Positions 32,661 through 55,412 of a stretch of 64,000 nt of DNA are shown here, piece by piece. Below the pieces are notes generated by a model, which had not been told where the DNA came from, did no database searches, and was given only the letters and a program-made list of their open reading frames with translations. The number at the start of each line of letters is the position of its first letter. Position 1 is the first letter of the stretch. Source of the DNA: Caenorhabditis remanei (Eukaryota; Nematoda; Chromadorea; Rhabditida; Rhabditidae); the NCBI RefSeq assembly GCF_010183535.1, contig NC_071329.1:17250879-17314878 (forward strand), given 5' to 3'. The position numbers and the translations under genes were made by a program.

Positions 32661-35600
32661 TTAGAATGGCAAAATAGTGGCGGTGAAACCATGATAATTA
32701 TAAGCAGCATCATATCTCGAGTCATGAGTAATCTTCACCACATTTGTGGCTCCCAAGACTTGGAATGGTCTCATGTTGCCATTCGGACTGGTGATCAAGT
32801 TTCCAAACTCATCATAAATGTAAACGGCGTTGTACGTGGAGAAATCAGTAAAGTAGATTCCGACGCGGTATGGTCCAAGGGCAGCAATGTTCCAGGTACA
32901 GGAAGTAATTGGGGGTCTGGTATTGGGGTATCCAAATGATGTAATGGTTCCTGGAGCCATGAGGAGAGTTGAGTTGCAGTTGGAGAAGTCGATGAGCTCG
33001 GTTTGTTTTTTGATGGAGTCTGGAAGAAAGAATGATTGGGATTTTCGGACTTTTGAGTCTTGAAATAAAATTTCTCAGCATTTTGAAAATGTGTGCATTT
33101 CGTCGTGTGATATGGTGCATCTACAGTAGCCTAGAGTGGAATTTTGAGATTGTCAGTTTATTTTGAAAGATTTGAAACGGCTATAACTTCAGAATCTGGA
33201 TGGGTGTGGTTTTTTGAGAAAAATGTTTCATCGGAAATCTGAAATTTTGTGCATTTTAAAATTTGTGCATATAGAATTTTTAAATTTTCAGCTTATTTTG
33301 ATAGATTTAAAACAAATTTTAACGTAAAAATCTGGTTTTCTGACGGTTTTTCGGTCTAGAAAAATGTTTTGTCGGAATTTTGAAAATTTGTGTATTTTCT
33401 CGTGAGATATGGTGCATCTACAATAACCTAAAGTAGAATTTTAAGATTTTCATTTTTTTTCGGATTTCTGACGTTATTGGGTTTAGAAACGAGAAAAAAT
33501 GACACAATTAAATTTTCCCGATAAAATTTTACAATCTTTTTGTCCGCGTTTTGTAGTCTTACCTTTTAAAGTTCTGACGAATTTTGGGTTGACTGGCTTC
33601 TCTTGCTCAACAACACTGTTATCTTCATCTTCTTCCATAGGTTTTGCAGTGGACGCTGGCTGAGCAGCACCGGCCTTTCTCTTACACAAGAAGTAGTTGA
33701 TATTCTGACAATTAGTCTCCGACCACATTCCGTTGTTTGGTCTACTCGACAAATCCATAGTCATACAGTTTCCTTTGGAAGTGGCTAGTGGATCAGTGTA
33801 GTCGAAATCCCAATTAGATCCATCTGACCAGTCAAAAGTGTCAGGAAGGAACGCCATGGCTCCCACAAATATTTGTTGGATACCAGAGGTTCTGTAGATG
33901 GCGCGAACGTAGTCAACTTCTGGTTTCGAGTGGAACGACACCATGTTTCCGCCGTTGGATTGGCAGATGCTTTGGGCCTTGACGTAGGTGGTGTTGACAG
34001 TAGCCAACTGCATTTCGTGGGAGGCCATGTAGCACCAGCCGTTGTAGTTATGGGTGCAGGTGGGGTCTGAAACAATTTTGAAAAATATCAGAGTGAAAAT
34101 TTGTGGGGACAGTCTCCATAAGTCTCTAGAATAAATTTCAGCCGGATCGGATATAATTGGTAGGAGCTACCGATGTTTAATAACGCTTCCCTTTGGGGGA
34201 TGAGGAGTCTACTGGGGATACTGTAACTCTCACAGTTTTGAAATTAGAAATACAAATTTTGACAAGAATGATGTCTAAGGCTTTATAAGTATACTGTAAA
34301 AATTTCAACTCAATAGGACTAAAATGGGAGGACCCCCATTGAAGAAGGCGGTGGCAAATGAGCTAAGTTTATTTGGAGTACTGTAAACACTGTAGTTTTG
34401 AAGAATTGGGCTGAAATTTTGTGAGAACAGTCTCCAAGATGTGATAAGTCTACAAAATAAATTTCAGCAAAATCGGACTGAAGTGGGCGGAGCTACAGAT
34501 GCTAAAATGCGCTTCACTTTGGGAGATGAGGAAACTGAAGTATGCTTATTGGTGGTACTGTACCTATTGTAGTTTTAGAGATATTGGGCTGAAATTTTGC
34601 AAAAAAGGAATGTCGGACTTTTAAACATTCTTAAATGATAAAAATTTCGAATTTTCCAAAATTTCGAAAAAAAAACTTGGTGGCCGAGAAATTTTTTTGG
34701 TGACCTAGAAACCCAAATCATTGATTCTCCCAGTTTTTCCCAAAATTCGAATTTTATTCCACTTTCAGAAGGTCCTGGTCATCAAAAAAAAACATAATTT
34801 TTGAGTGGTGGCCTAGAAAACAACTTGGTGGCCTAGAAACCCGCCTTTTCGATTTTAGTTTGAGGTAAGTCTACTGGGGATACTGTAACTCCCACAGTTT
34901 GGAACATATATATGTATGAATTTTTGCAAGGAGGATGCCTAAGGCTTTAAAAGTATATTGTGAAAATTTCAACTCTATCGAACTAAATGGGCGGAGTTAG
35001 AGGACTCCCATTGGAGAAGGCGGTGGCAAATGAGGCTAGTTTAATTGGAGTACTGTAAACAGTTTTGAAGATATTGGGCTGAAGTTTTGTAAAAACAGTA
35101 ATCAAGGCTTGATAAGTCTACAGAATAAAAAATCCAAATTTCAGAACTTACCAGCATTAGTCAATGGAACCTCGCAAATAAATGGCATACCAACGACCTC
35201 GCATGGGGCACTCAACCATTGTCCGGCGGTTTTTCCGGATGTCTGCATGTAGACACATCCTCCGTTTCCAGCAACTGCTGGGTTTCCAGCTGCGAAACTG
35301 TTGTAGGAAAGTGGTCCGGAGTTGTCATCGTGGTAGCAAGTGGTGGTGTTACCCGTGGCGAAACAGAACATGCCGAGCCAGACAGTGGTGGCGCCGGCGC
35401 TAGCGGCGAAGGTGGAGACGGCGCGGTTGTCCTGGAGTGGGTAATGGTAAAGTCGAATGTTTTTTTTAGAACTTTTTCTAACAGCATCATAACTAAAAAT
35501 ATAGGCATTCAATGGAATATAAGGTAAAATTTTGAAATTTTGCGAAATCTCGTCAGGTTGTAAAGAGTAAAGATATTGTCTGTTGTCAACTTTACCAGAG

Positions 35601-38600
35601 AATGTTCTCAGTTGCCAACTTGAAGGTCATCTGAAGGCCCCCTAAGGTTTTGCCCACAAAACTAGGACCTTCAGAACCTTCGTTACTCTCTGTTCTACTC
35701 ACCTTGTTATTATTCTCCTTTATTTCCTGTTATCAGGCTTATTTTATATTGATTAACAATTAATTATAATTCAAATACCCTCGCAAAGTAAATATGCAAA
35801 CGCGCTCCCCTGCACTTCTCTAATCCTCCACTCTCTCACTGAGAGATTCCCACACCCACTCATTCAGTTGCGAATAGTTTCGTATATGCGAACGGGTGCA
35901 AGGAGGAGCGCGCGTATTTGTTGTGAGTGCATTGAATGGATTTTCCATCTTTTCCGAAGGTTTTTGGGTGCATTGTCACTCTTTTTACCTTCGCCATCAA
36001 TGACAACACCCGCACGCACTCCTCGCAGTCACCTGCTCGTCATACCGTCAACTTTATCATTTTTATCTTCTTTTTACCTTTTTTGGTGCTTTATCAAGGG
36101 ATTCCGTGATAGAGAGCGTAATAAATGGGTCATTGAATACATGTGTACTGTTATTTCCGGTTGCATAGCTTATCTTACACAAAACTAGCCATTATTCATA
36201 TTAGAGTGCGTGATAATAACGGATTAGGCAATAGTCTTCGACCGCTCTTACTTGCCTTCTCCACATGGTGCATAACGACCGTTCAATTTCTTAATTGATG
36301 GCCAGCGGCGAATCGTTAATTTATCGATTTCGGCATTTCCGTTGTATAGTGGCTCTGATGTCTCTACATAAATCGCAAATTTATCGATTTCGACATTATT
36401 TCCCACTCGAAAACGGCTCTCATGTCTCTACACAAATCGTTAATTTATCGAGGACTTCTTTCCCGCTGTATATGAACCGAGTCGGCTCGCACAATTCTGA
36501 TTTTCTGAATATTTGGCTAAAAACGTGTTAAAAGTGAGCAATTGTAGCTAAAAAATAGCAACATGTTACCCTTTACCCTCTTTGTTTCGTTTTTCTTTGA
36601 TTTTCCGCGCTTTCGTCGTCTTTCCGTTCTCTCCTTTTCAGATTTTTTTCCTTTGTCACCAGTCGACGGCTCAGGGCATTGTCCGCTAGTCCATTCCTGG
36701 TCAAAGGAGAATTTTGGCAGTCATCGTCACCAGTCGACGGCTCCCGGCATTGTCCGCGAGTCCATTCCTGGTCAAAAGAGGATTTCGGCAGTCAACGACG
36801 CGAATCGAGCTGAAAAGTCCTACACCACAGTGTGTAGGCAGAAGAAAGAAGGTCAAATGGATCGAAGAAGTCGTGGTTGGCCAACATTCCGCTCGAAAAT
36901 CGTTGAAGAAAGAAGCACAATTCAGTCTACGAAGTCTGCGTTATTCTACGAGGTCTACGTCAAGTTTTCTACGATGTCTGCGTTTTTTCTACGATGTCAC
37001 GGTCACTCTACGAAGTCTGCATTATTCTACGAAGTCTACGTTGGCCAACATCCGCTCGAAAATCGCCGTTGAAGCTGACATCTTCTGAAAAACGACGGAA
37101 CTAGCCTCAGACCCGCACTAGAGACCCTTTTTCGATTGTCGTTCTCATTAGAATGCCGAAAAACTCTGTGTCAAGTCATGGCGAAACTCTGTTCGATTTT
37201 TTCTATTCACCCAAGTCGAAATTCTATGAATTTCGCACAAATTTGCGTCATTATGAGCAATTTTGCTTTTAACATGAGCAACAATGCCGTAAATCGACAC
37301 AAGTTTGAATTTCCCGCCAAAAAGTCGTACTGTCTAATGTTCACCGACATTGCGTACGACTGCGGACCTAACGAGCGCGAACGAAAAATTTTTCTTCTCC
37401 TAAAATTTTTATCGTCTCTCTTGCCGTTTCTCCGCAATTTCCGTTGATTTTATCCGTATTTTCCGTGATAATAATTAATTAAAGGGTTTATTTCAGACTT
37501 CTCGATGGCATGTGACAACGAAACACCACCATCCGCCCAACAGGCCAGCGAAAACGTGGAGGGACAGTCCGTGACAACCTCCGCAGCGATTCCAGCGCCA
37601 ACATCCGCGGACTCAAGCTCTAATAAGAGTGAGGTTGGTATTTTCTTGTCATGAATAGAAAAAATAACCAAAAAATCTGAAAATATCTGAGAATTTTCGA
37701 CCAAAAACGCAAAAAATCGATAATTTTCGACTGAAAATCATCGAAAAGTAGCTAAAAGCTTAAAATTTTGTGTCAAATCCAGATAAAATTCACTCTTTTG
37801 TGGATAAAAAGGCCAAAGGCCAGGCTTTCGGCAAAATTTTAGTCGCATTCGCTAAAATTTCGTGAAATTTCGACAAAAAACGCTAAAAATCAGTGATTTT
37901 GAGCAGTTTTAAGCTAAAATTCAGTGAACGCCGACGAACTAGTAGTCAAACTGCTGAAATTCGGTAAAAGCATCAAAGCTAACACCATTTCCGCCCAGTT
38001 TCTATTAGATTTTAAGGACTTCCGAGAGAATTTCAGCAAAAAACCTCACTTAATGATGCAATTTTTGAATTCCGGTGGAGGCGACGCGGCCGCGTAGCGG
38101 TTCCAGCGCTACTTTCGAAAATATTTCGAATTCCCACCCATAGAAATCGATTATTGCTCATAGCTCAGAATTTCGGTCACTATTTCATTGAAATTTAATA
38201 GAAATATACTGAAAGACACTGATTTGCAGCTAAAAAATTGCTAATTTAAGGCAAATGAACTCAAACTCAACTCTCTTTACCTATAATAACCCACAATTGT
38301 ACTGTTTTTATTACAGCACGATGTCGACAGCCGCAACAATCAATCGGACAACGACGTCAACAAGGATTCTGGCGCTTCAGACAACGACGTCGACAAGGAG
38401 TCTGGTGATTCCGACACCGACAACAACATCCGCATGCCGCCTAGAGCATCGGGTGCTCCACGTCATCTACATCCGCTAGAAGCCGATCTCCACAAGGGTA
38501 TAGAGTAATTGAGAGAAGAATTGTTGTATAACTATATAGTTACAGCATTCAACGAGCGAGTCCAAGCCTCTATGGCCAAAGGATGGGTCAACTTGGGAGG

Positions 38601-41600
38601 AGGACACTTCAACCAGTGCCGAGTCATCAACGCTGACGGGACAAGCTCTCTAATCCCGCATCCGTTCCCACCAGGACTCTCTGCGGACACATCTGTTTAC
38701 AACAGCCGCACAACTCCACCTCAGGCCAACAACCCGCGTCCAACGCCACCAACCGCATCTGCTCCAATCATGGACAGAATCGGAGGTACAATTATAGCAA
38801 AACGTCGAAAATATAACAAATTTCTTCCTTGCAGGGTTAGTCCAAAGAGCCGTATGCTGTTCGGGGATCTCGGAAGGCATTCGTCAACTCGTCCGAAGCT
38901 GCGGTGACAACGAGCAAAAGCTCACTGAAATTCTGCAAAGAGTTTCGTTGAAGCCGATGCCAAGGGACGCGAAGACAATCATCAATGGACTCTCAAAATG
39001 GTCGGAGGCCCGCGAGTTCCTTGGAACTCGCTTCAACATCCGCATCCACACGAAGAGCTCCACCCAAATTGCATACTACTCCGTTCATGGAGCGTATGCT
39101 AAGCAGCTGCTGTACTTGGATGACCAACACCCGCAATTCAAGGAGAAGAAGCGTATCGCCGACAAGAAGGAGGAGGACTGGGCCAAGGAGACAACTTCCG
39201 CACTTGTAGTGACGGAGTTGGTACAACATCCGCCCGTCCACACCTTCAGGCCACACACCTTCGGTCGCAGAAAGTGTCCATGCATCAAAACGATGATGCA
39301 CCACTATGCAGCACACGACGCCAACATTCAATGCGAAGCCAGAAGAGTCCTCCAAGAGGCAATTCTCGAAGTACATCACCAGATGACCTCTCACTCGCTT
39401 AGCGAGCTGAAGTCTCTCAAGCTCGGATGGAACCCATTGGATAATGGCGCCAACACCCGCAGACACTGAAGTCGTGTGAAAATGGCTGATAGCCGAAGAA
39501 CGCCTTTGAGGCATTGTTAACCTTTGTTTTGTTGAAACCATTGTTTTACCTTCTCTGTTTTTATCAGGAAAAAAGAATAAAAAGTTGAATAAAATTCACT
39601 TTCTTACTGATATTTCAGATCACTTCTCGTATTATACGACTATTGTTATCTTTCGCTATACTCTCATAGTGTCTCCATGTAATATTTATTGCAGAATGAG
39701 TGACATTGAGGAAATTCAAAGCGACGACGACACATCCAGAGTCGTGAGAGCGATCCAAGAGGAGTTGAAGACACCACCCGCACCATCCAAACGTACTTCT
39801 CGTCGTTCGGCAAGCCCGAGACGCCAAGAGGAGGACCAGGACAACGTGCCATCGTCTTCGGCGAAGAAGAGAGGAGCCAAGACTTCTGGGATTCATGCTT
39901 CGGAGCCGCAGGTCATTCCCAAGAAGGGAAGAATCTCGGAGCCAACATCCGCTGAAACTCGAAAAGAAGATCTTGAAGTCCGATCGATCGCCTCCAAGCC
40001 AATGGAGCCAACATCCGCCTTCGTAGCGTCAAAGGGTAACAATACGCTTCTATAAGCCTATAACCTTTAACGTCCCGTTTTTTTCCAGAGTACAAGGAAC
40101 TGCGTGAAGCGATCAAGTTTGTCAAGAACAAGTTGGAAACGTTCAAATCAGCAGATGACGTGGCTCCAGCGTGGATCAGATCAACCGATCAGATAGCCAC
40201 AATGATGTCCTGCATTGATAAGAACATGAAAGAACTTGTGAAGTCAAACAACAAGACCGTTGACACTCTACAGAATGCATGTGACATCATCCGCGGTCTC
40301 CAAGACCTTGTCGCATCACTCATCAACACGCATCACCAAGAGGACTGGCTCAAAGGCATGGCTGATGTCGTCGGCCGCACTGATGAGACTCGCAAACTAG
40401 TGGGCTCGCTAGCAGCGGCCACCGGACGCATCGAAGGTCTCTTGACAGCGACAACACCTGCCGTCTCGTCAGTCACTCGCAATCCTTACAAACTGGAGAA
40501 CACTAAAAGTGAAAAACCAGGGACAACATCCGCAAAAGTCAACGTGAGTTATCTTTTGATTCATTTGAAAGAGAACCATAACTGATATATTTCAGCGAGG
40601 TTGCATTCTCTGTGACTCCGACGCCCACAACACCGAAAACTGTCGTTCGTATCCAAAATCGATCGACAGGATTCAACAGGCACACAAGTTGAACGTCTGC
40701 ATCCAATGTCTGGAGCCATTTCGAGCCAACGACAAAGGATTGCATGAGGAATGCACAAGAGTCGGCGTTAAATGCCGCAGTTGCTTCCGCTACGTCGACT
40801 ACGATGAGGCCTCGTATCATCACCCGGTCTTCTGCTGCTTCAGAGCGCAGAGCAACGGTGCGGGAACGAGTCACGAGCCACCAAACAAGCCAAAAACTCC
40901 TGTCATCAAGGTATAACCTATAACACAGCCTGATAGTAAGCAATCATTGATAGTTTCAGCAACATCCGCTGAGACGCGGCACTTCACGACGTGGACATTG
41001 AGCCGGTCACAGAAGGCGCCAACATCCGCTGACGAACTTCAACATCCGCTGATCCTCAATCAAATTGTTGCTTTTTCTATTATTTTTGTTGTTAACCTTG
41101 TTATCTCCTCGGAGACACTCTTGTTTTTGTTCCATTCTACATGGACAATTGTTGCAGTAAAAGCTTTGGAGCATTTGCTCATTGAATAAAGCATTAAAAG
41201 TTATCAAACATATTTCTTATCTCTTCTTCTGTGACTCTTGAGTATATATACTCTGTCGAATATCTGTTTATAGGCGACATCACGGAGATTTTGGAGAGAA
41301 TGAGATGATGACTAGCAACAAGGTGCTCTTTTGAACACAAACTTTAAAGCAACACATTTAGCTACAACAACACCGTATAGGTACACATTCACTGATTACT
41401 CAAAGAGCATCAGATACATGGGGATGACAAACCCACATAAATTTTCAACAATGCAAGACATATTTTGCACAACACTACAGATGACACATCATCAACACTT
41501 CAAACGTTAGTCCTCGGACAAACGTCTACATAAGAAGACCTACACAAACGAGTATAGGCAACATCCACCTCGGTTCTTCAAAGCTACTGCTTTGTATCCA

Positions 41601-47600: not shown

Positions 47601-50600
47601 CCACTATGGCAACAAGAGCCCAAGCCACGATGCAAATGGTTTCGACGTCTGCGGGCACACGAGCCTCAGTCATCACTAATGTTGAAAAACACATTGAAAC
47701 GCCAATCTTGAGCGCACCAGTACCCTTCAGAAGCCCTCTAGTTGTGCCACAACATAACGAGACACCAATCGCAAACAATACTCCAAACATGCATGATATC
47801 ATGCAAGCGATACATTCAGTTGCTGAGCATCAAAAGCAGATAGTGCATCATAATACCAGCATGATTCATGAACTGGAGCAGCGAATGGATGCCCGTTTCC
47901 AAGAAAGAGCCGAATCTATCATCTCAAAGAGAAGCAAGAGACAACAGCAACAGAACTCAGAGGGTTCCGAGTCTGACTATGCGAGCAGATACGAACAAGG
48001 ACTAGCTTCCGCAGACTCCGGCGATGAAACAGATCGCCCACAAGAAGCGCAGGCGCCACGTCCCCAAACTACAAGAAATCGCAAAAAGGAAGTTCCGAAA
48101 CCCAAAACCACTGAGCCCTCAGCTGCTGGCCCGCAAAACACCGGGGTACCAGCAGACTTTATGCTGAAATACTTGCCGAAATTTGATGGTACAACGGATT
48201 TGGACTTTTTCGAACATGTATATTCAAAGTTCGTTCTATCGAACAGTCACTTCAACGCGGAGGCGAAGTATGCCATTCTTCTGAATCATATTACTGGTCC
48301 AGCAAAGAATTGCATCTCGCTTGCCAAAGACTCGCACATCGCTATCATGACAACATTCTGCTCATTGAAGAAGGTCTATGGAAAGATCAACAATCGACAC
48401 AGCCTCATTTCGAAGCTGCAGAAAATGCCCTTCCATCAAACAGACCCAGATGCAATGCGTTTGGACGTCGTGAAAATAGCCGGAATTCTTCAACAGCTAA
48501 AAGACAAAGGTGTTCCAACAACCGACCACATGGTCAGCGGAGCCATTGGAGCAAAACTTCCAGCAGACTTCAGGAAAAGTCTAGCCAGATATACGGTGGA
48601 GATCGGAGAGGACAACATCACTCACGATCAAATCCTCGATCACATCAGCAGTGAAATCGAAGTCATAACTATCGAACATACATTCACTAGCCAGATGAAT
48701 CAGCCTCCAATGAATGAACTACCAGAGTCATACGCTGCTATACACTATACGAATTCCAATCAGAGTCGGACAGCATCCGCAGGTCAACAAAGCTACAAGA
48801 CCGCAAGCGCAAATAATAGGGATCCAGTTTACGTTGCATCACAACATCCGCATGAATACACAGATCCTGCCACCAACGCCAAACTGGAAGGCTATTATGC
48901 CCCAGGAGCTAAAGGCGTTAATCTGAAATTGATTCATCGGACGTTTCCATACACCAACGAGGAAGACTCGAAATGCGCTGTCTGCGGTGGAAAACATCAT
49001 ATCATCAGATGCCCACTGCCAAGTACAGAATTCCGCAACAAGATCAAACAGAAAGGGCTTTGCCCAATCTGTGCTCGTAAACATGAGATCACCAAATGCG
49101 TCGCGGCGTACCGCTGCGGTTACTGCGATGGACTCCACAACATGGGTGGTTGTCCCAGGAAAGAACATTACAGAAACCCAAAGAACTATCCAAAAGGTGC
49201 CAAGAAGGTCGAAACATTTTTTCGTGCCCGTAACACCAACAAGTCTCAATAAAGGCATTCCGGCAGACACGGGGTCAAAAGTACCGAATCCCGTGTCACA
49301 CGCTGACTTGCCAACAGCATATTACAATAACTATTGTTCTGAGATTTCACCTGTTTGTTCTACTAACCTTGTTTCTAATAATAATGTTTCTTTCTCTGCA
49401 GTACCACCGAGGTACTTTGTTGCTGACCCTACCAATATCACCTATTTCAAAAATCTCGTTTCTGAAGATTGTTCGGAGGACAAAGATCCTAACGAACTGG
49501 CTATGTTGTTGTTTACCAGATTTCTGGCAAGATCACCACCTCATCAAGTGACTGCGGCGATTGCCGATTGTGACAACAACCGCTTAACGTTTCTATGTCT
49601 GGAGACCTCGGATGGTCAACATCTGCTGGCTCTGTCGGATTCGGGCGCATCGTTGTCTCTCATACACGAGGCTAAAGCCAAAGCATTGTCACTACCAATC
49701 TTGAAAGAAACACAACTTACAGTTCAAGGATTCAGTTCCACCACTTTCGCCAGAACGAAGATTTTTGCTCTAAACTTATCCTTATATGGTACCGATAAAC
49801 CACTTTCTATTATGATTGTAGGTACCCCAACACTTCCTAATACAAAGTTCGCTGCTCCAAAATGTTCGTCAGAAGATTCACAGTATATTAAAAGCCATAG
49901 AATTGATACTCAAAGAGTCAGAACCAGTGCAAAATACAACGGTCGAAAAATTGACATGATTCTGGGAAACGATCTGTTATCCTGGATCTCAGCTCAACGC
50001 CAATACCGCAAACACATTCTTCCATCCGGAAGAGCACTGGAGCAAACTCAGCTCGGAATGTTGATCCACCCTGTGCCGAGGCTAGACCTATGGTCACCTG
50101 GACACCATCCGCTACCGTCTGACGAGTATCAATCAACAATCAACATGGCCAACACAATTCTGAACAGCTGTGAACCTGAAGACGCCATGACAAAGCTAAC
50201 GTATCTTGTTGCCCAAATGTACAGAGTTGAGAATCTGGGAATCGAGAACATAACGGTATCCGATGATCTCAAGAAGACCACTCTCGATCTACTTGTTGAA
50301 TTCAACAAAACCGTCAAATTCAACAAAGACGGACAACTGGAAGTAGCACTTCCCTACAATGGCAACCAAGTACGTCTAGCTGACAATTATGCAGTAGCGT
50401 TCAAAAGATTAGTAAGTCTTCTTCTGACTTTGAAGAGAGGCAAAGATCTTCTCGAAAAGTACGCGAAGATTATCATAGATCAAGAAATCGCTGGCTATAT
50501 TGAGAAGGTTACACCGGAGATGCTGAAAGTCAAAGGTCCAAAGTACAACATCCCGCATCGTTGCGTAGTAAAAGAAGATTCAATGACAACCAAGCTACGC

Positions 50601-53600
50601 ATTGTCTTGGACGCCTCCAGCCACGCTGCCGGCGAACTCTCATTGAATGAATGCTTATACGCCGGGACTAACATGATCACTCCTATATTCGGAATTCTAG
50701 TCAGAGTAAGGTTCCCACCAATCATCGTGGTAGCTGATATCGAAAAGGCTTTTCATCAAGTCAGACTTCAACCTGAATTCCGTAATGTGACAATGTTTCT
50801 TTGGCTGAAAGACGTAACAGCACCCGCAACAGCCGACAATATCCAAGTATATCGATTCACACGTATTCCATTCGGAGTTGCTAGCAGCCCCTTCCAACTT
50901 GCAGCATATATCACCTTCAATCTGGACAACAATCCGCATGATCTCAACAAAGAGATCAAGGACAACATTTACGTTGACAACTGTCTCTTCTGCGTGAATG
51001 ACGCATCGGAAATCTCCGCAATAATCAAAGACTCGAAAGAAATTTTCCAAAAAATGGGAATGAACTTGAGAGAATATATTGTAAATCATCCGGAGACCAT
51101 GCAGTCACTATCACCAGCAGATAGAGCTCAACAGTCCACCATCAAGCTGCTCGGATATACGTGGAATTCGATTGAGGATACACTCTCTGTAAAAATAGCC
51201 CAGCTGAATATTGATCATCCAACTAAAAGAGATGTTGCGTCCAAAATGGCGGAGACGTTCGACCCCTTAGGTCTAGTTTCACCGATTCTAGTACCTTTTA
51301 AAAGGTTGATGCAACGTATCTGGAATGATGACACGAATTGGAAGGATCCCATTCCAAAAGAGCTACTCCATGAATGGGGAGCTCTATGTAACAACTACAT
51401 AGACAGAGCGATCAGCTTACCTAGACAGCTTACGGCAGAATCGGGACATTCTGATATCCACCTGCTTATGTTTAGCGATGCCTCGCATGACATCTATGCT
51501 TCAGTCTGTTACGCCTACTACATCGTGGATGGGAGACCACCAATTGTGTCATTACTCGCCAGTAAGAACAAAATCCGACCGTCAAAGAACGAGAATTGGA
51601 CTATTCCGAAACTTGAGCTTCTTGGCATTCAATGTGCGTCAAATCTAGCCTGTGCAATTATCGCAGAGCTCCGTGTAAACATCGCGTCCATCAAGCTGTT
51701 CACAGACAGTGCTTGTGCTCTCTATTGGATTCTCTCAGAAAAGAACACCCGCCCATGGGTCGGAAATCGGATAAAAACTATCCAAGAGAATCGGAACAAG
51801 ATGAAGGAATGTGGCATTGATACCACAATTCATCATTGTCCAACCAAAGAGAACCCGGCTGACTTTGCCACAAGGGGAATGAGCACCACTGAACTCCAGA
51901 ACAGCAAGATGTGGTTCGAAGGCCCGGATTTCCTCAAACAGGATCCGGGAGATTGGCCATGTATGATCCAAGGGACAGTCACTTGCCCAGCTGAATTCAG
52001 AGAATTGGTCTACTCAGAGATCATTGATCCAGAGACCAAAAAGGCAAGAAAGCCGCTTATGGAAAGAAAAAAGAAAGTGACAACACCCGCGGCCAACAAT
52101 GAAGCTCAGACTCCATCCGATACAGTGATGACTACTGACATCAGAGTCACTCGAAAAGGATCGTTCATTCCGTTCTACGCAACAAAATCTCTAACCAAAT
52201 TGACTAGAATAGTCGTACAGATTCTGTACTCATTAAGCATCTCGCTCAAAAACAAGTCATGGGAAAGTCAAGTGATGAAAGAGTTCACCAAATCGGACTG
52301 CCCGCTCCACAGAGCAAAGGTAGCTCGATTGCTCATTATCACCGAGCATTACAAGGACTGTGAAGCTCTTGACTACAAATACCCAACCGACATTGAGTTC
52401 AACATTGACACACAAGGAATACGTCGAGTGCACAGAAGAATTGAATCTCCAGTACTTCCACAGGAAGCCAGCGAGCCAATCTTCATCCACAATCGACATC
52501 CGCTTGCTCAGCTAATCGCTCGAGAGACACATGAAATAAATGGTCATCTACCAGAGACGTATACAGTATCCGCAATCCGGACCAAGTATTGGATTCCCAA
52601 ACTTGGAGGCATCCTAAAAAATATCATCAGAGAATGTGTCGAGTGTCAGAAAGTGAACAATTTCCCTTTCGACTATCCATACACTAAAAATCTCCCTAAA
52701 TGCCGTACTACTCCATCTAAACCGTTCTCAAATGTAGCACTAGACTACCTAGGACCAATCATGTACCGAGCAGACGATGGCAGATCAGCCAAAAAAGCGT
52801 ACGTCCTCATCTACACTTGTCTCAACACCCGCGGAGCAGTCCTCAAAGTCGTTCCAGATGGAACAGCCTTCAGATACATCCAAACACTCAAAATGATCTT
52901 CGGAGAAGTCGGAGTGCCAAAGAGTATCTATTCGGACAACGCATCCACGTTTAAGTTGAGCGGTGAGATCATCAACAAAGACATTAAGAATGCAGATTAT
53001 AGTCAATCACTTGTCGAGTACCTCGCCAGAGAACTGATCAACTTTAAGTTCATCACACCTCTCGCTCCATGGCAAGGAGGTATCTACGAAAGAGTGGTGA
53101 AACTCGTGAAAACCCAGATCACCAAAGAGTGTGGGGCACGAATGTATGACTACTATTCGCTTCAATATGTCGTGTCAAGAGCTCAGTCAATGGTCAATAA
53201 CCGCCCTCTGATCCCACACGCCAGATCTCCAGGAGACATGGTCGCACTGAGACCCTTCGATTTCATAAACCCAGGAGTCCTAACTGAAATTCCAGCCGAA
53301 TCTGAAGACCCAAATGTACTTCCAAGAAGTACTGAGGCAACAGTTCGAGCACATCTAGATAAGATGGAAGCAGCTACGGAACGAATGTGGAAATTATGGT
53401 CGACAGGATACTTGCTCCATCTGAGAGAAAACATGCACAAAAAGAAGCGTTGTTCGCTCATCAAACCTGAAGTGGGTCAGGTGGTCATCGTTGTTACCAA
53501 GTTGGTTAAAAGGCATAAATGGCCACTAGGCATTATCACTAAAGTCGAAAGATCTGAAAGAGATGGACAAATTCGCTCAGCGATTGTCAAGGTGAAAGGC

Positions 53601-55412
53601 AAGTTGTACTCACGTGCAGTCTGTCAGCTGATCCCGCTTGAACTAAATCCACTGAACCATCTATCTACACAGGCGGTTAAGCAAGCTGATCTAGCAGAGG
53701 ACAACAACTCATTTGAGCTGCCAACACCCGCAATTCTCGAAGATCCCGACATGAGATACGCCCCCGTGCTATTCCCTAAAAACGACTTGCCAAATATTGC
53801 TGAAGCTGAGTACAACTTACCAGAATCAAATCTACCACTGAACCCAATAACCGATAAACTTGAAAGTATCGGAGAACCTGGTGAGCCAGACTACGAGGAC
53901 TTCGAACTCCTCGGGAATGGAGTAGAAGACGAGAGTATCTACCAAGATCCCCAAAGGATCATACCAGCTGAAGCTGCAGAAGATGATTTTGCCGAGTTGC
54001 CGACGGGACGCGTCAGAGAATACCTCTCTCGCAAAGCCAAGAGCATGCCCATCAACTACGTGCATATCACTGACGCTAGCGCAGACGCTAAGAATCCGTC
54101 GCCCCCTCCCCCCCGGGAGTGTTGTCAACTTTACCAGAGAATGTTCTCAGTTGCCAACTTGAAGGTCATCTGAAGGCCCCCTAAGGTTTTGCCCACAAAA
54201 CTAGGACCTTCAGAACCTTCGTTACTCTCTGTTCTACTCACCTTGTTATTATTCTCCTTTATTTCCTGTTATCAGGCTTATTTTATATTGATTAACAATT
54301 AATTATAATTCAAATACCCTCGCAAAGTAAATATGCAAACGCGCTCCCCTGCACTTCTCTAATCCTCCACTCTCTCACTGAGAGATTCCCACACCCACTC
54401 ATTCAGTTGCGAATAGTTTCGTATATGCGAACGGGTGCAAGGAGGAGCGCGCGTATTTGTTGTGAGTGCATTGAATGGATTTTCCATCTTTTCCGAAGGT
54501 TTTTGGGTGCATTGTCACTCTTTTTACCTTCGCCATCAATGACAACACCCGCACGCACTCCTCGCAGTCACCTGCTCGTCATACCGTCAACTTTATCATT
54601 TTTATCTTCTTTTTACCTTTTTTGGTGCTTTATCAAGGGATTCCGTGATAGAGAGCGTAATAAATGGGTCATTGAATACATGTGTACTGTTATTTCCGGT
54701 TGCATAGCTTATCTTACACAAAACTAGCCATTATTCATATTAGAGTGCGTGATAATAACGGATTAGGCAATAGTCTTCGACCGCTCTTACTTGCCTTCTC
54801 CACATTGTCATCTAACTTTTTGAGGGTACATTACAAGTTCAGAGTTGCATTTTTTTATTTGATATTTTATTTGGGTGGAGTGTTACCAGAAAACTATAGT
54901 TACCCTAACGAAATTGGAAAATCCGATTTGTTGGTCAATTTACAAGCACTCACAACTTTCTAGAGGGCTTACATGTTAGAATTCTGAAATTATAGCTTTT
55001 GACTGTAGACAGCCTTACAGTCGGTTATTTCAAAAACCTTCTTACTCAGGTCTACAATGTCTAAATGCTGTTATTTTGATAATATTGAAAAGCTGACGGG
55101 TAACTCCGCCCATTATTGTGCTAGAAAAAATCAGAAAACGGATTCAGAACCCTCACGTCGTCAGCTTTTTAGCTATGTGTTAAACGTGACTAAAAGACGG
55201 AAACTCACGATAGCAGTCTTCACGGTGACCATTGTTCCTCCAATATACTTACAATCTGTCTCAGCCTCCATATGCTTCAACTTATTCGTGAAAACTCTCA
55301 AGCATTTGTTCGAATTGACCAACTTGAATCCAGTTGGACACGCCTGTCCCGCAACATAATGTACGGAAAATAAAGCGAGAAGAAGAGAAATTAAAACTGA
55401 TTTTGCCATCAT
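32661..55412 (-). CDS. Secreted C-type lectin with CTLDs and CUB, split by a 19-kb retrotransposon (lectin D)
   Basis: Exons (minus strand) 55412-55209, 35431-35152, 34066-33563 and 33019-32661 join in frame to 448 residues. Exon 1 (signal peptide, ACPTGFKLVNSNKCLRVF) lies on the far side of the giant BEL element, the rest on the near side. Its donor phase fits exon 2 (DNRAVSTF) as in lectins A-C. CTLD 1 has VWLGMFCF and GGCVYMQTSG. CTLD 2 has CTHNYNGWCYMASHEM and NYFLCKRK plus an acidic linker. CUB has CNSTLLMAPGTITSFGYP and HGFTATILPF. Intron 1 is 19,777 bp and would be about 550 bp without the element, which is inserted antisense. Coding exons are intact, but expression may be lowered by the long intron or by silencing of the element. 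Confidence 0.88.
34080..35130. repeat. Intron 2 of lectin D, repeated blocks
   Basis: Paralogous about 150-bp blocks (ttgggctgaaattttg, gataagtctacagaataaa, ggaggacccccattg) recur near 34080-34330, 34380-34600 and 34860-35120, with one GGTGGCC repeat between them. Confidence 0.6.
35581..36265 (+). repeat. 5' LTR of the giant element
   Basis: 685 bp, TG to CA, identical by eye to 54120-54804. It contains one CAACACCCGC motif (36004-36013). The 106-codon open frame in it is probably chance. Confidence 0.97.
36266..36280 (+). other. Putative primer binding site
   Basis: TGGTGCATAACGACC directly after the 5' LTR. The first eight bases complement the 3' end of tRNA-Gly (ATGCACCA). The rest does not fit that tRNA, so the primer identity is uncertain. 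Confidence 0.55.
36281..37504 (+). repeat. Leader with three sets of tandem repeats
   Basis: About 36305-36450 has three copies of a unit with aaatcg..aatttatcga and gtctctacayaaatcg. About 36655-36800 has a 70-bp unit twice (caccagtcgacggctc; gtccattcctggtcaaa). About 36930-37050 has repeated ctacgaagtctgcg. A CAACATCCGC motif sits at 37046-37055. An acceptor (tttatttcag, ending 37496) lies 8 bp before the X1 start codon. Confidence 0.75.
37505..39469 (+). CDS. Accessory gene X1 of the giant element
   Basis: Exons 37505-37633, 38317-38497, 38546-38785 and 38835-39469 join in frame to 394 residues. The N-terminal third is low-complexity Ser/Ala/Thr/Asp-rich (NKDSGASDNDVDKESGDSD) and probably disordered. 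The C-terminal 230 residues look folded, with alternating charged helices (KWSEAREFLGTRFNIRIH; EAILEVHHQM) and a CPC motif (GRRKCPC) near HH residues that could bind metal. I do not recognise the fold, and no polymerase, protease or envelope motif is present. It is preceded by a splice acceptor and followed by AATAAA at 39576 and 39588, about 100 bp before the acceptor of X2. Seven CAACA[T/C]CCGC motifs fall in its exons, in different frames. Confidence 0.75.
39576..39593 (+). terminator. Poly(A) signals after X1
   Basis: Two AATAAA hexamers (39576-39581, 39588-39593), about 100 bp before the TTATTGCAG acceptor of X2, the spacing seen between genes in worm operons. Confidence 0.6.
39696..41001 (+). 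CDS. Accessory gene X2 of the giant element, zinc-knuckle protein
   Basis: Exons 39696-40035, 40089-40543, 40596-40910 and 40960-41001 join in frame to 383 residues. The N-terminus is acidic then basic (SKRTSRRSASPRRQEED). The middle is a long helical, coiled-coil-like region (IDKNMKELVKSNNKTVDTLQ). Exon 3 carries a zinc knuckle of Gag type (CILCDSDAHNTENC, C-x2-C-x4-H-x4-C) followed by further C-x2-C and H/C pairs (CIQCLEPF, CRSCFRYV). The architecture is like a small Gag or nucleocapsid protein, so RNA binding or capsid interaction is a reasonable inference. Its start follows a TTATTGCAG acceptor by one base. Intron sizes are 49-53 bp, as in host genes. Confidence 0.78.
41002..42493 (+). 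other. Spacer between X2 and X3
   Basis: About 1.5 kb without a convincing gene. It holds two CAACATCCGC copies (41020, 41040) just after the X2 stop, AATAAA at 41185-41190, one arm of an inverted repeat (41304-41339), and an acceptor (aattcag) directly before the X3 ATG. Confidence 0.6.
42494..45562 (+). CDS. Accessory gene X3 of the giant element, large Cys/His-rich protein
   Basis: Six exons (42494-43582, 43652-43960, 44008-44196, 44244-44321, 44372-44452, 44504-45562) join in phase 0 to 934 residues. Residues about 140-220 carry clustered zinc-binding motifs (CPICASQ..H..C; CNWCNSRSATHINC; CQLCRRPGH). Residues about 390-580 are Pro/Gln/Ser-rich and disordered. The last 350 residues look globular and helical (LANIRKYYRWLVKLGHALSHERILIVML; WMLSFLTQKI) with no family I recognise. 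Small phase-0 exons in the linker allow modular alternative splicing. It has nine CAACA[T/C]CCGC motifs including one just after the stop. Possible roles are genomic RNA export, packaging or particle function. None is proven. Confidence 0.78.
45563..46525 (+). other. Structured spacer before gag
   Basis: No gene. AATAAA at 45673-45678 could end X3 transcripts. A CAACATCCGC motif lies at 45574. A 9-bp perfect stem (GCTCCGACA/TGTCGGAGC) is at 46083-46103. The second arm of the inverted repeat is at 46361-46410. A strong acceptor (tttttttcag) ends at 46480, 45 bp before the likely gag ATG at 46526. Confidence 0.6.
46526..49252 (+). CDS. gag: Gag of the giant BEL element
   Basis: 908 residues from the ATG at 46526. 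The frame is open back to 46433, but the acceptor ending at 46480 favours the inner start. The N-terminus is Ser/Arg-rich (SLTSRSQSPVPRSRK), then come coiled coils and Gln/Pro-rich linkers, then a DUF1759-like capsid region (FMLKYLPKFDGTTDLDFFEHVY) as in BEL Gags. Three CxxC-type zinc knuckles end the protein (CAVCGGKHHIIRC, CPICARKHEITKC, CGYCDGLHNMGGC), expected to bind the genomic RNA. It overlaps the pol frame, which is +1 relative to gag. Only one CAACATCCGC motif (48842) occurs in it. Confidence 0.92.
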   Translation: MSSLTSRSQSPVPRSRKALSLPPEREVPRTGAKSRSRSRPTLTQSIVGPTKTVIKKSIGKAKELIEASKAKLTFFDDPQNKTLENIDAETLESTDKLVLKMKTAIQKITELSDFIERQFNKPEMRASPERDAFLKEVTDALHDSGANEVLLDLNNGVNNLEYVLASCGRRPTEFDPYGTGAQEDDRLVEANEVGSGISDNVRQNNMQSTTVEQPSAIRTESQSSSGPITSSAARNISQMDYDYEAFDQLANGHKFMNLRLQEENRILRINADKHRRAHDEDIRRRTAQETENIDRVYSLQNELAQQPRDIMTLAQPHVEHSPMPNQALALHADRPQRITAQPSPIAASTPNNNVATAPATMATRAQATMQMVSTSAGTRASVITNVEKHIETPILSAPVPFRSPLVVPQHNETPIANNTPNMHDIMQAIHSVAEHQKQIVHHNTSMIHELEQRMDARFQERAESIISKRSKRQQQQNSEGSESDYASRYEQGLASADSGDETDRPQEAQAPRPQTTRNRKKEVPKPKTTEPSAAGPQNTGVPADFMLKYLPKFDGTTDLDFFEHVYSKFVLSNSHFNAEAKYAILLNHITGPAKNCISLAKDSHIAIMTTFCSLKKVYGKINNRHSLISKLQKMPFHQTDPDAMRLDVVKIAGILQQLKDKGVPTTDHMVSGAIGAKLPADFRKSLARYTVEIGEDNITHDQILDHISSEIEVITIEHTFTSQMNQPPMNELPESYAAIHYTNSNQSRTASAGQQSYKTASANNRDPVYVASQHPHEYTDPATNAKLEGYYAPGAKGVNLKLIHRTFPYTNEEDSKCAVCGGKHHIIRCPLPSTEFRNKIKQKGLCPICARKHEITKCVAAYRCGYCDGLHNMGGCPRKEHYRNPKNYPKGAKKVETFFRARNTNKSQ
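48987..54173 (+). CDS. pol: Pol polyprotein of the giant BEL element
   Basis: A single open frame of 1728 codons, +1 to gag with up to 266 bp overlap. True Pol probably begins near the gag stop. Domains in order: aspartic protease (LALSDSGASLSLI; ILGNDLLSWI), reverse transcriptase (VVADIEKAFHQVRLQ; FTRIPFGVASSPFQL; IYVDN in the active site), RNase H (LMFSDASHD; ELLGIQ; LFTDSACALYW), integrase zinc domain (HEINGH ... CVECQ), catalytic D, D and E (VALDYLGPI, IYSDNAST, GIYERVVK) and a DUF5641-like C-terminal part (ERMWKLWSTGYLLHLRE). The stop lies 51 bp inside the 3' LTR. The DDE catalytic residues are present and no internal stop is seen, so the enzyme set may be functional. Confidence 0.95.
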   Translation: MENIISSDAHCQVQNSATRSNRKGFAQSVLVNMRSPNASRRTAAVTAMDSTTWVVVPGKNITETQRTIQKVPRRSKHFFVPVTPTSLNKGIPADTGSKVPNPVSHADLPTAYYNNYCSEISPVCSTNLVSNNNVSFSAVPPRYFVADPTNITYFKNLVSEDCSEDKDPNELAMLLFTRFLARSPPHQVTAAIADCDNNRLTFLCLETSDGQHLLALSDSGASLSLIHEAKAKALSLPILKETQLTVQGFSSTTFARTKIFALNLSLYGTDKPLSIMIVGTPTLPNTKFAAPKCSSEDSQYIKSHRIDTQRVRTSAKYNGRKIDMILGNDLLSWISAQRQYRKHILPSGRALEQTQLGMLIHPVPRLDLWSPGHHPLPSDEYQSTINMANTILNSCEPEDAMTKLTYLVAQMYRVENLGIENITVSDDLKKTTLDLLVEFNKTVKFNKDGQLEVALPYNGNQVRLADNYAVAFKRLVSLLLTLKRGKDLLEKYAKIIIDQEIAGYIEKVTPEMLKVKGPKYNIPHRCVVKEDSMTTKLRIVLDASSHAAGELSLNECLYAGTNMITPIFGILVRVRFPPIIVVADIEKAFHQVRLQPEFRNVTMFLWLKDVTAPATADNIQVYRFTRIPFGVASSPFQLAAYITFNLDNNPHDLNKEIKDNIYVDNCLFCVNDASEISAIIKDSKEIFQKMGMNLREYIVNHPETMQSLSPADRAQQSTIKLLGYTWNSIEDTLSVKIAQLNIDHPTKRDVASKMAETFDPLGLVSPILVPFKRLMQRIWNDDTNWKDPIPKELLHEWGALCNNYIDRAISLPRQLTAESGHSDIHLLMFSDASHDIYASVCYAYYIVDGRPPIVSLLASKNKIRPSKNENWTIPKLELLGIQCASNLACAIIAELRVNIASIKLFTDSACALYWILSEKNTRPWVGNRIKTIQENRNKMKECGIDTTIHHCPTKENPADFATRGMSTTELQNSKMWFEGPDFLKQDPGDWPCMIQGTVTCPAEFRELVYSEIIDPETKKARKPLMERKKKVTTPAANNEAQTPSDTVMTTDIRVTRKGSFIPFYATKSLTKLTRIVVQILYSLSISLKNKSWESQVMKEFTKSDCPLHRAKVARLLIITEHYKDCEALDYKYPTDIEFNIDTQGIRRVHRRIESPVLPQEASEPIFIHNRHPLAQLIARETHEINGHLPETYTVSAIRTKYWIPKLGGILKNIIRECVECQKVNNFPFDYPYTKNLPKCRTTPSKPFSNVALDYLGPIMYRADDGRSAKKAYVLIYTCLNTRGAVLKVVPDGTAFRYIQTLKMIFGEVGVPKSIYSDNASTFKLSGEIINKDIKNADYSQSLVEYLARELINFKFITPLAPWQGGIYERVVKLVKTQITKECGARMYDYYSLQYVVSRAQSMVNNRPLIPHARSPGDMVALRPFDFINPGVLTEIPAESEDPNVLPRSTEATVRAHLDKMEAATERMWKLWSTGYLLHLRENMHKKKRCSLIKPEVGQVVIVVTKLVKRHKWPLGIITKVERSERDGQIRSAIVKVKGKLYSRAVCQLIPLELNPLNHLSTQAVKQADLAEDNNSFELPTPAILEDPDMRYAPVLFPKNDLPNIAEAEYNLPESNLPLNPITDKLESIGEPGEPDYEDFELLGNGVEDESIYQDPQRIIPAEAAEDDFAELPTGRVREYLSRKAKSMPINYVHITDASADAKNPSPPPPRECCQLYQRMFSVANLKVI
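54120..54804 (+). repeat. 3' LTR of the giant element
   Basis: 685 bp, identical by eye to the 5' LTR. It is preceded by a C-rich run and GGGAG rather than a long purine tract, and followed by the TTGTC duplication. Confidence 0.97.

What the first reader, a model, noticed from the sequence alone, without database searches (positions are those of the whole stretch)
35581..54804. A 19.2-kb BEL/Pao retrotransposon carrying three spliced accessory genes
Seen: identical 685-bp LTRs, TTGTC duplications, intact gag and pol, and about 9 kb of additional DNA upstream of gag with three multi-exon genes whose exons sum in frame to 394, 383 and 934 residues. Known: BEL/Pao elements normally encode little beyond Gag-Pol and usually lack introns. 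Inference: this is a complex-retrovirus-like element in which an unspliced genome must coexist with spliced accessory mRNAs. The accessory proteins have no family I recognise.
Basis: partly seen in the sequence, partly recalled or inferred. Interest (0 to 1): 0.96.

Follow-up and report, generated by a model that had tools for sequence, protein, structure and literature searches.

The report
Giant worm retrotransposon with motif-tagged RNA
A 19-kilobase jumping element in the worm Caenorhabditis remanei carries three extra predicted genes that recur in related element families, and several of these families are sprinkled, almost only on the coding strand, with a short sequence tag of their own that likely lets element proteins recognise their own RNA.

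Summary
Window 35581-54804 is an LTR element with identical 685-bp LTRs, TTGTC duplications, open gag and pol, and three predicted intron-containing genes before gag (394, 383, 934 aa). It is not a one-off: three more 19-kb copies with the same block sit in the same Caenorhabditis remanei genome, each with identical LTRs and its own 5-bp duplication, and X1-X3 are under purifying selection. An X3-type gene lies upstream of reverse transcriptase in 24 of 89 BEL RT rows, down to 46% RT identity. Two copies from two families have lost one X3 intron exactly, so spliced RNA has re-entered the cycle.

Related families carry other short words in the same way (TCCCGCCG 64:0; AYCCGCGG; GACCGCT; GCATCCCAC). 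In two families the words are conserved beyond their surroundings. X2, X3 and Gag each have three zinc-knuckle-like clusters. Best reading: element proteins, most likely the spliced accessory ones, bind a family-specific tag that marks their own full-length RNA for export or packaging. The binding is inferred, not shown.

The parts
35576..35580 (.). target-site duplication TTGTC, left
35581..36265 (+). 5' LTR (685 bp), with one CAACACCCGC at 36004
36266..37504 (+). leader between LTR and X1; word copy at 37046; acceptor-like site 8 nt before the X1 ATG
37505..39469 (+). X1, exons 37505-37633, 38317-38497, 38546-38785, 38835-39469 (394 aa; = GCK72_007624); 6 word copies in coding sequence
39696..41001 (+). 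X2, exons 39696-40035, 40089-40543, 40596-40910, 40960-41001 (383 aa); three CX2C..H..C clusters at residues 268, 300, 325; 4 word copies in coding sequence, 2 more just after it (41020, 41040)
41631..42361 (+). non-coding stretch 84-91% alike in 14-kb copies, more than the adjoining X2 (68-70%)
42494..45562 (+). X3, exons 42494-43582, 43652-43960, 44008-44196, 44244-44321, 44372-44452, 44504-45562 (934 aa); CX2C..H..C clusters at residues 146, 188, 206; 9 word copies in coding sequence, 1 after it (45574)
44453..44503 (+). X3 intron 5, exactly absent from the copy at C2:2.81M (L009)
46403..49252 (+). gag ORF (949 codons; acceptor-like site ends at 46480, next in-frame ATG 46526); DUF1759; three CCHC clusters near the C-terminus
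48933..54173 (+). pol ORF (1746 codons), overlapping gag in the +1 frame; protease-like, RT, Pao peptidase A17, integrase zinc domain, DUF5641
54120..54804 (+). 3' LTR, identical to the 5' LTR; word copy at 54543
54805..54809 (.). target-site duplication TTGTC, right
36004..54552 (+). 30 copies of CAACAHCCGC (36004, 37046, 37599, 38424, 39034, 39125, 39224, 39451, 39943, 40009, 40524, 40960, 41020, 41040, 42562, 42584, 42795, 43210, 43932, 44184, 44385, 44755, 45007, 45574, 48842, 49574, 52081, 52823, 53722, 54543); 0 on the - strand of the element

Best explanation
This is a recently inserted 19.2-kb BEL/Pao retrotransposon of C. remanei, one of several related families with predicted spliced genes ahead of gag and with a family-specific short word scattered almost only along the coding strand, and it likely works by having its zinc-knuckle proteins bind that word to mark the element's own full-length RNA. 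Shown here: the anatomy, the copies, the selection on X1-X3, the strand-specific words and their conservation in two families, and exact intron losses in two copies. Inferred: (1) host RNA processing makes separate X1, X2, X3 and gag-pol messages from one long transcript, by cis-splicing inside X1-X3, polyadenylation after each gene and probably spliced-leader trans-splicing at the acceptor-like site before each start codon; (2) X2, perhaps with X3 or the Gag nucleocapsid, binds the word, read as linear single-stranded RNA; (3) binding at many sites keeps the RNA unspliced and exported, and/or selects it for particles over host RNA and over the RNA of sibling families that bear other words. 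I think step 3 as a self-recognition tag most likely; it is the least tested step.
For: 30 sense against 0 antisense copies of CAACAHCCGC in the element, in three reading frames, UTRs, leader and LTR, 0 in 1197 nt of introns where 4.4 are expected from coding density (P 0.012). Other words in other families: TCCCGCCG 64:0 over the two adjoining stretches L022 and L027, AYCCGCGG 28:7, GACCGCT 16:0 and 17:0, GCATCCCAC 11:0; far above shuffles and above 8 BEL loci of RT identity 45% or less. Conservation: 27 of 28 sites in L023/L028 against 51-56% for other 8-mers (P about 2e-6), 15 of 15 in L022/L041 against 63-72% (P 0.004-0.007). Three CCHC-like clusters in X2, X3 and Gag. X1-X3 dN/dS 0.09-0.50. 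Exact intron losses. Precedent: CERV of Cer1, made from a spliced mRNA, is needed for export of unspliced gRNA (PMC10309623).
Against: No binding, expression or packaging data. In the window family itself the word is sparse in gag-pol (0.65 per kb against 2.27 per kb in the leader and accessory block; score -1.1) and not conserved beyond chance among the four close copies (20, 23 and 20 of 23 sites; P 0.62, 0.057, 0.63) nor in L024/L040 (P 0.3). Sites turn over between the 19-kb and 14-kb lineages (3-5 of 12-14 shared in 6 comparisons). Knuckle homology between Gag and X2 or X3 is weak (hhalign probability 5% and 3.5%; X2-X3 0.2%). No preference for unpaired context. The X3 model is useless (pLDDT 34).
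Confidence: 0.45

Rival explanations
1. Rev/CERV-like switch only: an accessory protein coats the nuclear transcript through the many word copies, blocks its splicing and internal polyadenylation and exports it; packaging is done by Gag through another signal.
For: Intron-bearing copies predominate (43 of 44 intron positions); AATAAA-type signals follow X1, X2 and X3 inside the element and would have to be bypassed; CERV of Cer1 exports unspliced gRNA and has a cysteine loop needed for it (PMC10309623, section 15 read); in the window family the word is concentrated in the accessory block.
Against: Does not by itself explain why the word differs between families in one genome; the L022 element also has 20 copies in its gag-pol stretch.
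Confidence: 0.25
2. Gag tag without accessory proteins: the words are dispersed packaging sites for the Gag nucleocapsid, and X1-X3 do something else, such as countering host silencing.
For: Words occur in L025, L037 and L038, where no X3 was detected; Gag has three CCHC clusters.
Against: 8 BEL loci with Gag-Pol but RT identity of 45% or less score 0.0 to -3.4, so a word is not a general BEL Gag feature; window gag-pol has few copies.
Confidence: 0.15
3. Host-directed signal: the words are exonic splicing enhancers or shields against small-RNA silencing, bound by host proteins.
For: No word in 1197 nt of window introns; strand-specific and exonic.
Against: Related families in the same host use different words; L022 has copies in its non-coding stretches and in its gag-pol stretch.
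Confidence: 0.1
4. X1-X3 are unrelated host genes trapped in a single chimeric locus.
For: None beyond the unusual size.
Against: Four full copies with clean duplications and the same order; homologous X3 genes before gag-pol in other families.
Confidence: 0.01

Closest known systems
BEL/Pao retrotransposons (Belpaoviridae; ICTV profile PMC8742986, whole text read)
   Same: LTRs, Pao peptidase A17, RT and integrase domains, overlapping gag and pol.
   Different: The profile gives 4.2-10 kb and gag, pol and sometimes an env-like gene; this one is 19.2 kb with three spliced genes before gag and a dispersed word.
CERV of Cer1, a Ty3/Gypsy element of C. elegans (PMC10309623; abstract, 12 of 21 found passages and sections 6 and 15 seen)
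   Same: A spliced accessory message in a nematode LTR element; a cysteine-rich protein needed for export of unspliced genomic RNA.
   Different: Other superfamily; CERV shares exons with gag, whereas X1-X3 are separate genes before gag; no dispersed word was seen in the parts read. Homology to CERV was not tested.
Rev/RRE-type switch of complex retroviruses (recalled; passage in PMC10309623)
   Same: Unspliced genome and spliced regulatory messages from one transcript.
   Different: RRE is one structured region; here many short linear words.
Dispersed packaging signals of RNA viruses (search listing only: e.g. PMC4751978, PMC7612645)
   Same: Many short RNA sites along a genome, bound by an own coat or core protein.
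   Different: Those are described as motifs in stem-loops; no stem-loop preference was found here.
Bacterial DNA uptake sequences (recalled)
   Same: A short word dispersed through a genome as a self label that differs between relatives.
   Different: Double-stranded DNA in bacteria, not a one-strand word of a mobile element.
Additional ORFs of plant LTR retrotransposons (PMC7264820, listing and start of abstract)
   Same: LTR elements with genes beyond gag-pol.
   Different: Plant elements; homology and placement were not compared here.

Membership tests
BEL/Pao LTR retrotransposon | Pao retrotransposon peptidase A17 and RT in one pol frame | tested here: met
   PF05380 E 8e-32 and 5e-16 in the two pol pieces, PF00078 E 1e-9
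BEL/Pao LTR retrotransposon | Integrase region after RT | tested here: met
   PF17921 and PF18701 in the second pol piece
BEL/Pao LTR retrotransposon | LTR pair with target-site duplication | tested here: met
   identical LTRs, TTGTC
BEL/Pao LTR retrotransposon | tRNA primer-binding site | not tested
   the stretch after the LTR begins TGG; no tRNA was matched
Rev/CERV-like RNA exporter | Made from spliced RNA of the element | tested here: met
   exact intron losses for X3; gene models only for X1 and X2
Rev/CERV-like RNA exporter | Binds own genomic RNA and is needed for its export | not testable with these tools
   needs experiments
Dispersed stem-loop packaging signals | Motif presented in stem-loops | tested here: not met
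   unpaired probability of the word equals that of in-place shuffles in 5 of 6 sets; L024 slightly higher, 1 of 10 shuffles as high
Dispersed stem-loop packaging signals | Many copies along the genome on the packaged strand | tested here: met
env-like third gene | A membrane-spanning envelope-like protein | tested here: not met
   highest 19-residue Kyte-Doolittle mean in X1, X2, X3 is 0.82, 1.00, 1.38; no Pfam match above cut-off

The most novel reading that the evidence does not exclude
A set of animal retrotransposons labels its RNA with a self-identity code: each family scatters its own 7-10-nt word along the sense strand, in coding and non-coding parts alike, and an element-encoded zinc-knuckle protein that diverges with the family, most likely the accessory X2, reads the word, so that co-resident families keep their RNAs apart and full-length RNA is told from host RNA.
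Probability: 0.42. Interest if true: 0.93.

Novelty: new variant of a known kind. Interest (0 to 1): 0.86.

Why it matters
How LTR elements pick their own RNA out of a cell, and how intron-bearing genomes escape splicing, are open questions outside a few well-studied retroviruses. Here one genome holds a natural series of related families with an accessory gene block and a coding-strand word that changes from family to family, so a reader and its code can be tested by swapping partners in vitro. The element is also about twice the upper size that the ICTV profile gives for BEL/Pao elements.

Tried and rejected
AlphaFold2 of X3 (P0002 with four relatives) gave mean pLDDT 34, so no fold search was made. 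PDB by sequence: only a RING/CHY fragment at E 0.13 for X3 and nothing for gag. Rfam: 0 matches. Hairpin presentation of the word: not found. X3 as a DNA-transposon insertion (suggested by the inverted repeat and the 14-kb copies without X3): rejected, because X3 lies before gag in several other families, so loss in the 14-kb lineage is simpler. One origin of the word-bearing group by RT tree: not shown (5 rows labelled by RT identity of 49% or more, 2 changes needed, one change in 3% of bootstrap trees). BEL loci of RT identity 45% or less as motif controls: best scores 0.0 to -3.4 in 8 loci (L029-L036; L030 and L033 are one family); L030 and L033 show a weak CCCCAGCG, so a faint form of the phenomenon outside the group is not excluded. 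In one search the top octamer of L017, L020 and L021 was not the family word. A prokaryotic promoter/terminator scan is meaningless here and not used. Print: 10 searches listed no BEL element with such genes or words, but the library is open-access only and nearly all papers were seen as listings; PMC3118150 (BEL/Pao in metazoan genomes) was only term-searched.

Full report
WHAT IS THERE. The window is C2:17250879-17314878 of a 130.47-Mb, 186-contig genome. X1 is letter for letter the C. remanei protein GCK72_007624, on a contig of the same length as C2, so the host is C. remanei (strain PX506 is recalled). The element spans 35581-54804 with two identical 685-bp LTRs and TTGTC on both sides. 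Gag (949 codons) and pol (1746 codons) are open and overlap, pol in the +1 frame. Pfam places RT, the Pao peptidase A17, the integrase zinc domain and DUF5641 in pol and DUF1759 below its cut-off in gag. The 10.1 kb before the gag ORF hold X1 (4 exons, 394 aa), X2 (4 exons, 383 aa) and X3 (6 exons, 934 aa), all with GT..AG introns. Pfam finds nothing above its cut-offs in ten ORF stretches of the block, nor in the annotated proteins P0001 and P0002.

IT IS A HERITABLE MODULE. The LTR search gave four pairs about 18.5 kb apart and five pairs 13.5-14.1 kb apart, start to start (only the best 40 of 72 candidates were scored). The three other long copies are 97.7-98.4% identical to the window over about 9.9 kb of the 5' half. 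Each of the four has an LTR pair without a difference and a 5-bp duplication of its own: TTGTC, TAATT, GTCAT, GATGC, so all are recent insertions. Against the window copy, dN/dS is 0.43-0.50 (X1), 0.26-0.30 (X2) and 0.09-0.19 (X3), without stops in the compared codons (about the last 80 nt of X3 were outside the comparison). The 14-kb copies keep LTR (88-98%), leader and X1 exon 1, have a diverged X2 (38-47% aa per exon; 68-70% DNA), and in the three fetched loci long enough to show it (L018, L019, L020) lack about 3.4 kb with X3. Several have stops in the RT stretch. An X3-type match lies upstream on the same strand within 15 kb in 24 of 89 RT rows: 24 of 49 rows with RT identity 46% or more, 0 of 40 with 45% or less. 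Both lists are capped, one element can give two RT rows, and the X3 search may miss remote relatives, so the zero is not proof of absence. At C6:3.51M the order X1, X2, X3, gag, pol is complete in a family of 76% RT identity. X2-type knuckles also occur in L023, L024, L026, L028 and L040. An RT tree of 12 rows does not make the group one clade.

IT IS SPLICED. The copy at C2:2.81M (L009) lacks exactly the 51 nt of X3 intron 5, joined exon to exon, whereas the window, L010 and L011 keep it. In a second family L023 lacks a 48-nt X3 intron (GTGAGG...TTTCAG, allowing for one base of gap placement) that L028 keeps. Such losses are expected when spliced or partly spliced RNA is reverse-transcribed. 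In the four long copies 43 of 44 intron positions are retained, so the RNA that is copied is normally unspliced. In the window, acceptor-like sites end 8, 1 and 0 nt before the ATGs of X1, X2 and X3 and 45 nt before an in-frame gag ATG; the X3 site is also adjacent to the ATG in L010, L011 and L023. AATAAA-type signals follow X1, X2 and X3. This looks like a nematode operon resolved by trans-splicing, which is inference.

THE WORD. CAACATCCGC occurs 19 times on the + strand of the 64-kb window and never on the - strand, all 19 inside the element. As CAACAHCCGC the element has 30 on + and 0 on -: 2 in LTRs, 1 in the leader, 19 in X1-X3 coding sequence in all three frames, 3 in presumed 3' UTRs, 5 in gag-pol, and 0 in 1197 nt of introns where 4.4 would be expected. 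The genome holds 260 exact copies of CAACATCCGC (170 forward, 90 reverse) against 94 of the reversed word. Related families have other words: TCCCGCCG 44:0 in L022, 20:0 in the adjoining gag-pol stretch L027, 24:0 in L025 and 26:0 in L041; AYCCGCGG 28:7 in L023 (the core is palindromic); GACCGCT 16:0 and 17:0 in L024 and L040; GCATCCCAC 11:0 in L026 and 6:0 in L037; ACCGCG 17:1 in L039; CCTCGA 22:3 in L038.

CONTROLS FOR THE WORD. Scored against dinucleotide expectation with a 4^k correction, the best log10 values are -30 (window accessory block), -86 (L022), -36 (L027), -22 (L023), -20 (L028), -15 (L024), -43 (L025), -17 (L026), -6 (L037), -10 (L039), -7 (L038), -6 and -6 (14-kb L018 and L016), and only -1.1 for the window gag-pol. 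Eight BEL loci of RT identity 45% or less score 0.0 to -3.4; shuffles 0.3 to -3.4. Five host chunks of the window score -1.8, -8.3 (a tandem repeat), -2.8, -7.1 (a word found on both strands) and -3.3. Of these loci, X3 was detected for the window, L022/L027, L023, L024, L026, L028 and L039, but not for L025, L037 and L038. On gag-pol pieces alone, values below -4 occur in 4 of 5 loci of the RT 49%-or-more group (L027, L037, L038, L039, not the window) and in 0 of 8 others. So the word follows the RT group; it is not tied one to one to a detected X3.

IS THE WORD MAINTAINED? In L023/L028, 27 of 28 sites are kept where 51-56% of other 8-mers are (P about 2e-6); in L022/L041, 15 of 15 aligned sites against 63-72% (P 0.004-0.007). 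L024/L040 (15 of 16, P 0.3) and the close window copies (20, 23 and 20 of 23; P 0.62, 0.057, 0.63) show no clear excess. Between the 19-kb and six 14-kb copies only 3-5 of 12-14 aligned sites are shared, and between L022 and L025 6 of 17 by strict columns, where gap placement splits some sites, so words also turn over. Apart from the word, the flanks of the copies show no common sequence by eye. No preference for unpaired or hairpin context was found.

WHO READS IT? The strand bias and frame independence point to RNA, or single-stranded cDNA. The change of word between related families points to a reader that changes with the family, so an element protein. Candidates are X2, X3 and Gag, each with three CX2C...H...C clusters. 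X2 is my best guess: it is found in the window family, the 14-kb copies, L022, L023, L024 and L026, and it diverged strongly between the 19-kb and 14-kb lineages. Gag remains possible, because words occur where no X3 was detected and X2 was not established for L025, L037 and L038. Profile comparison of Gag and X2 knuckles is in register but weak (probability 5%, P 0.0023), Gag and X3 likewise (3.5%, P 0.0039), X2 and X3 not (0.2%, P 0.16). CERV of Cer1 shows that a nematode LTR element can use a spliced-mRNA protein with a cysteine loop to export its unspliced RNA (PMC10309623). The sparse word in window gag-pol is the main point against a pure packaging tag; it would fit a tag that separates genomic RNA from a gag-pol message.

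VERDICT. The finding is real and larger than reported: several related BEL families with an accessory block, and a family-specific coding-strand word. It is filed as BEL/Pao by pol; the word and its presumed reader are the new part. No step of the mechanism after splicing has been tested.

Noticed in passing
41631-42361 and 45756-46403; L022 6006-6462 (turned to the coding strand): Non-coding DNA around X3 that is better conserved than the X2 gene (84-91% and 77-79% against 68-70% in 14-kb copies) and still 68% alike (window 41778-42234) in another family. Function unknown; perhaps part of the gag-pol leader.
   Followed up: no
L012-L016, L018-L020 (14-kb copies): Mosaic divergence: LTR and leader 88-98% and 86-92% alike to the window but X2 only 68-70% and the second half of X1 hardly alignable, as if the block had been exchanged between lineages.
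   Followed up: partly
L025 (C1:15764230-15775863): An LTR-flanked relative of the L022 family without an RT match and without detected X1-X3, yet with 24 sense copies of TCCCGCCG; possibly non-autonomous.
   Followed up: partly
L030 and L033: Two copies of a BEL family outside the word-bearing RT group show a weak strand-specific CCCCAGCG (5:0) and CCCCAGC 11:0 in L030.
   Followed up: partly
36655-36796: A 71-nt tandem duplication in the leader (90% identical), also present in the other copies.
   Followed up: no
48933-49252: Gag and pol overlap by 320 nt with pol in the +1 frame, so a +1 shift or splicing is needed to make pol.
   Followed up: no
55940-56398: Nested inverted repeats (108-nt arms, 91%) just downstream of the element.
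   Followed up: no
34206-35061: Pairs of 46- and 62-nt direct repeats about 665 nt apart just upstream of the element.
   Followed up: no
15902-16125: A degenerate G+C-rich tandem repeat around CGGTCGGC.
   Followed up: yes
P0007 (GCK72_011150): Annotated as ATP-dependent DNA helicase: a PIF1 fragment joined to an X3-type piece, likely a gene model fused across two mobile elements.
   Followed up: no
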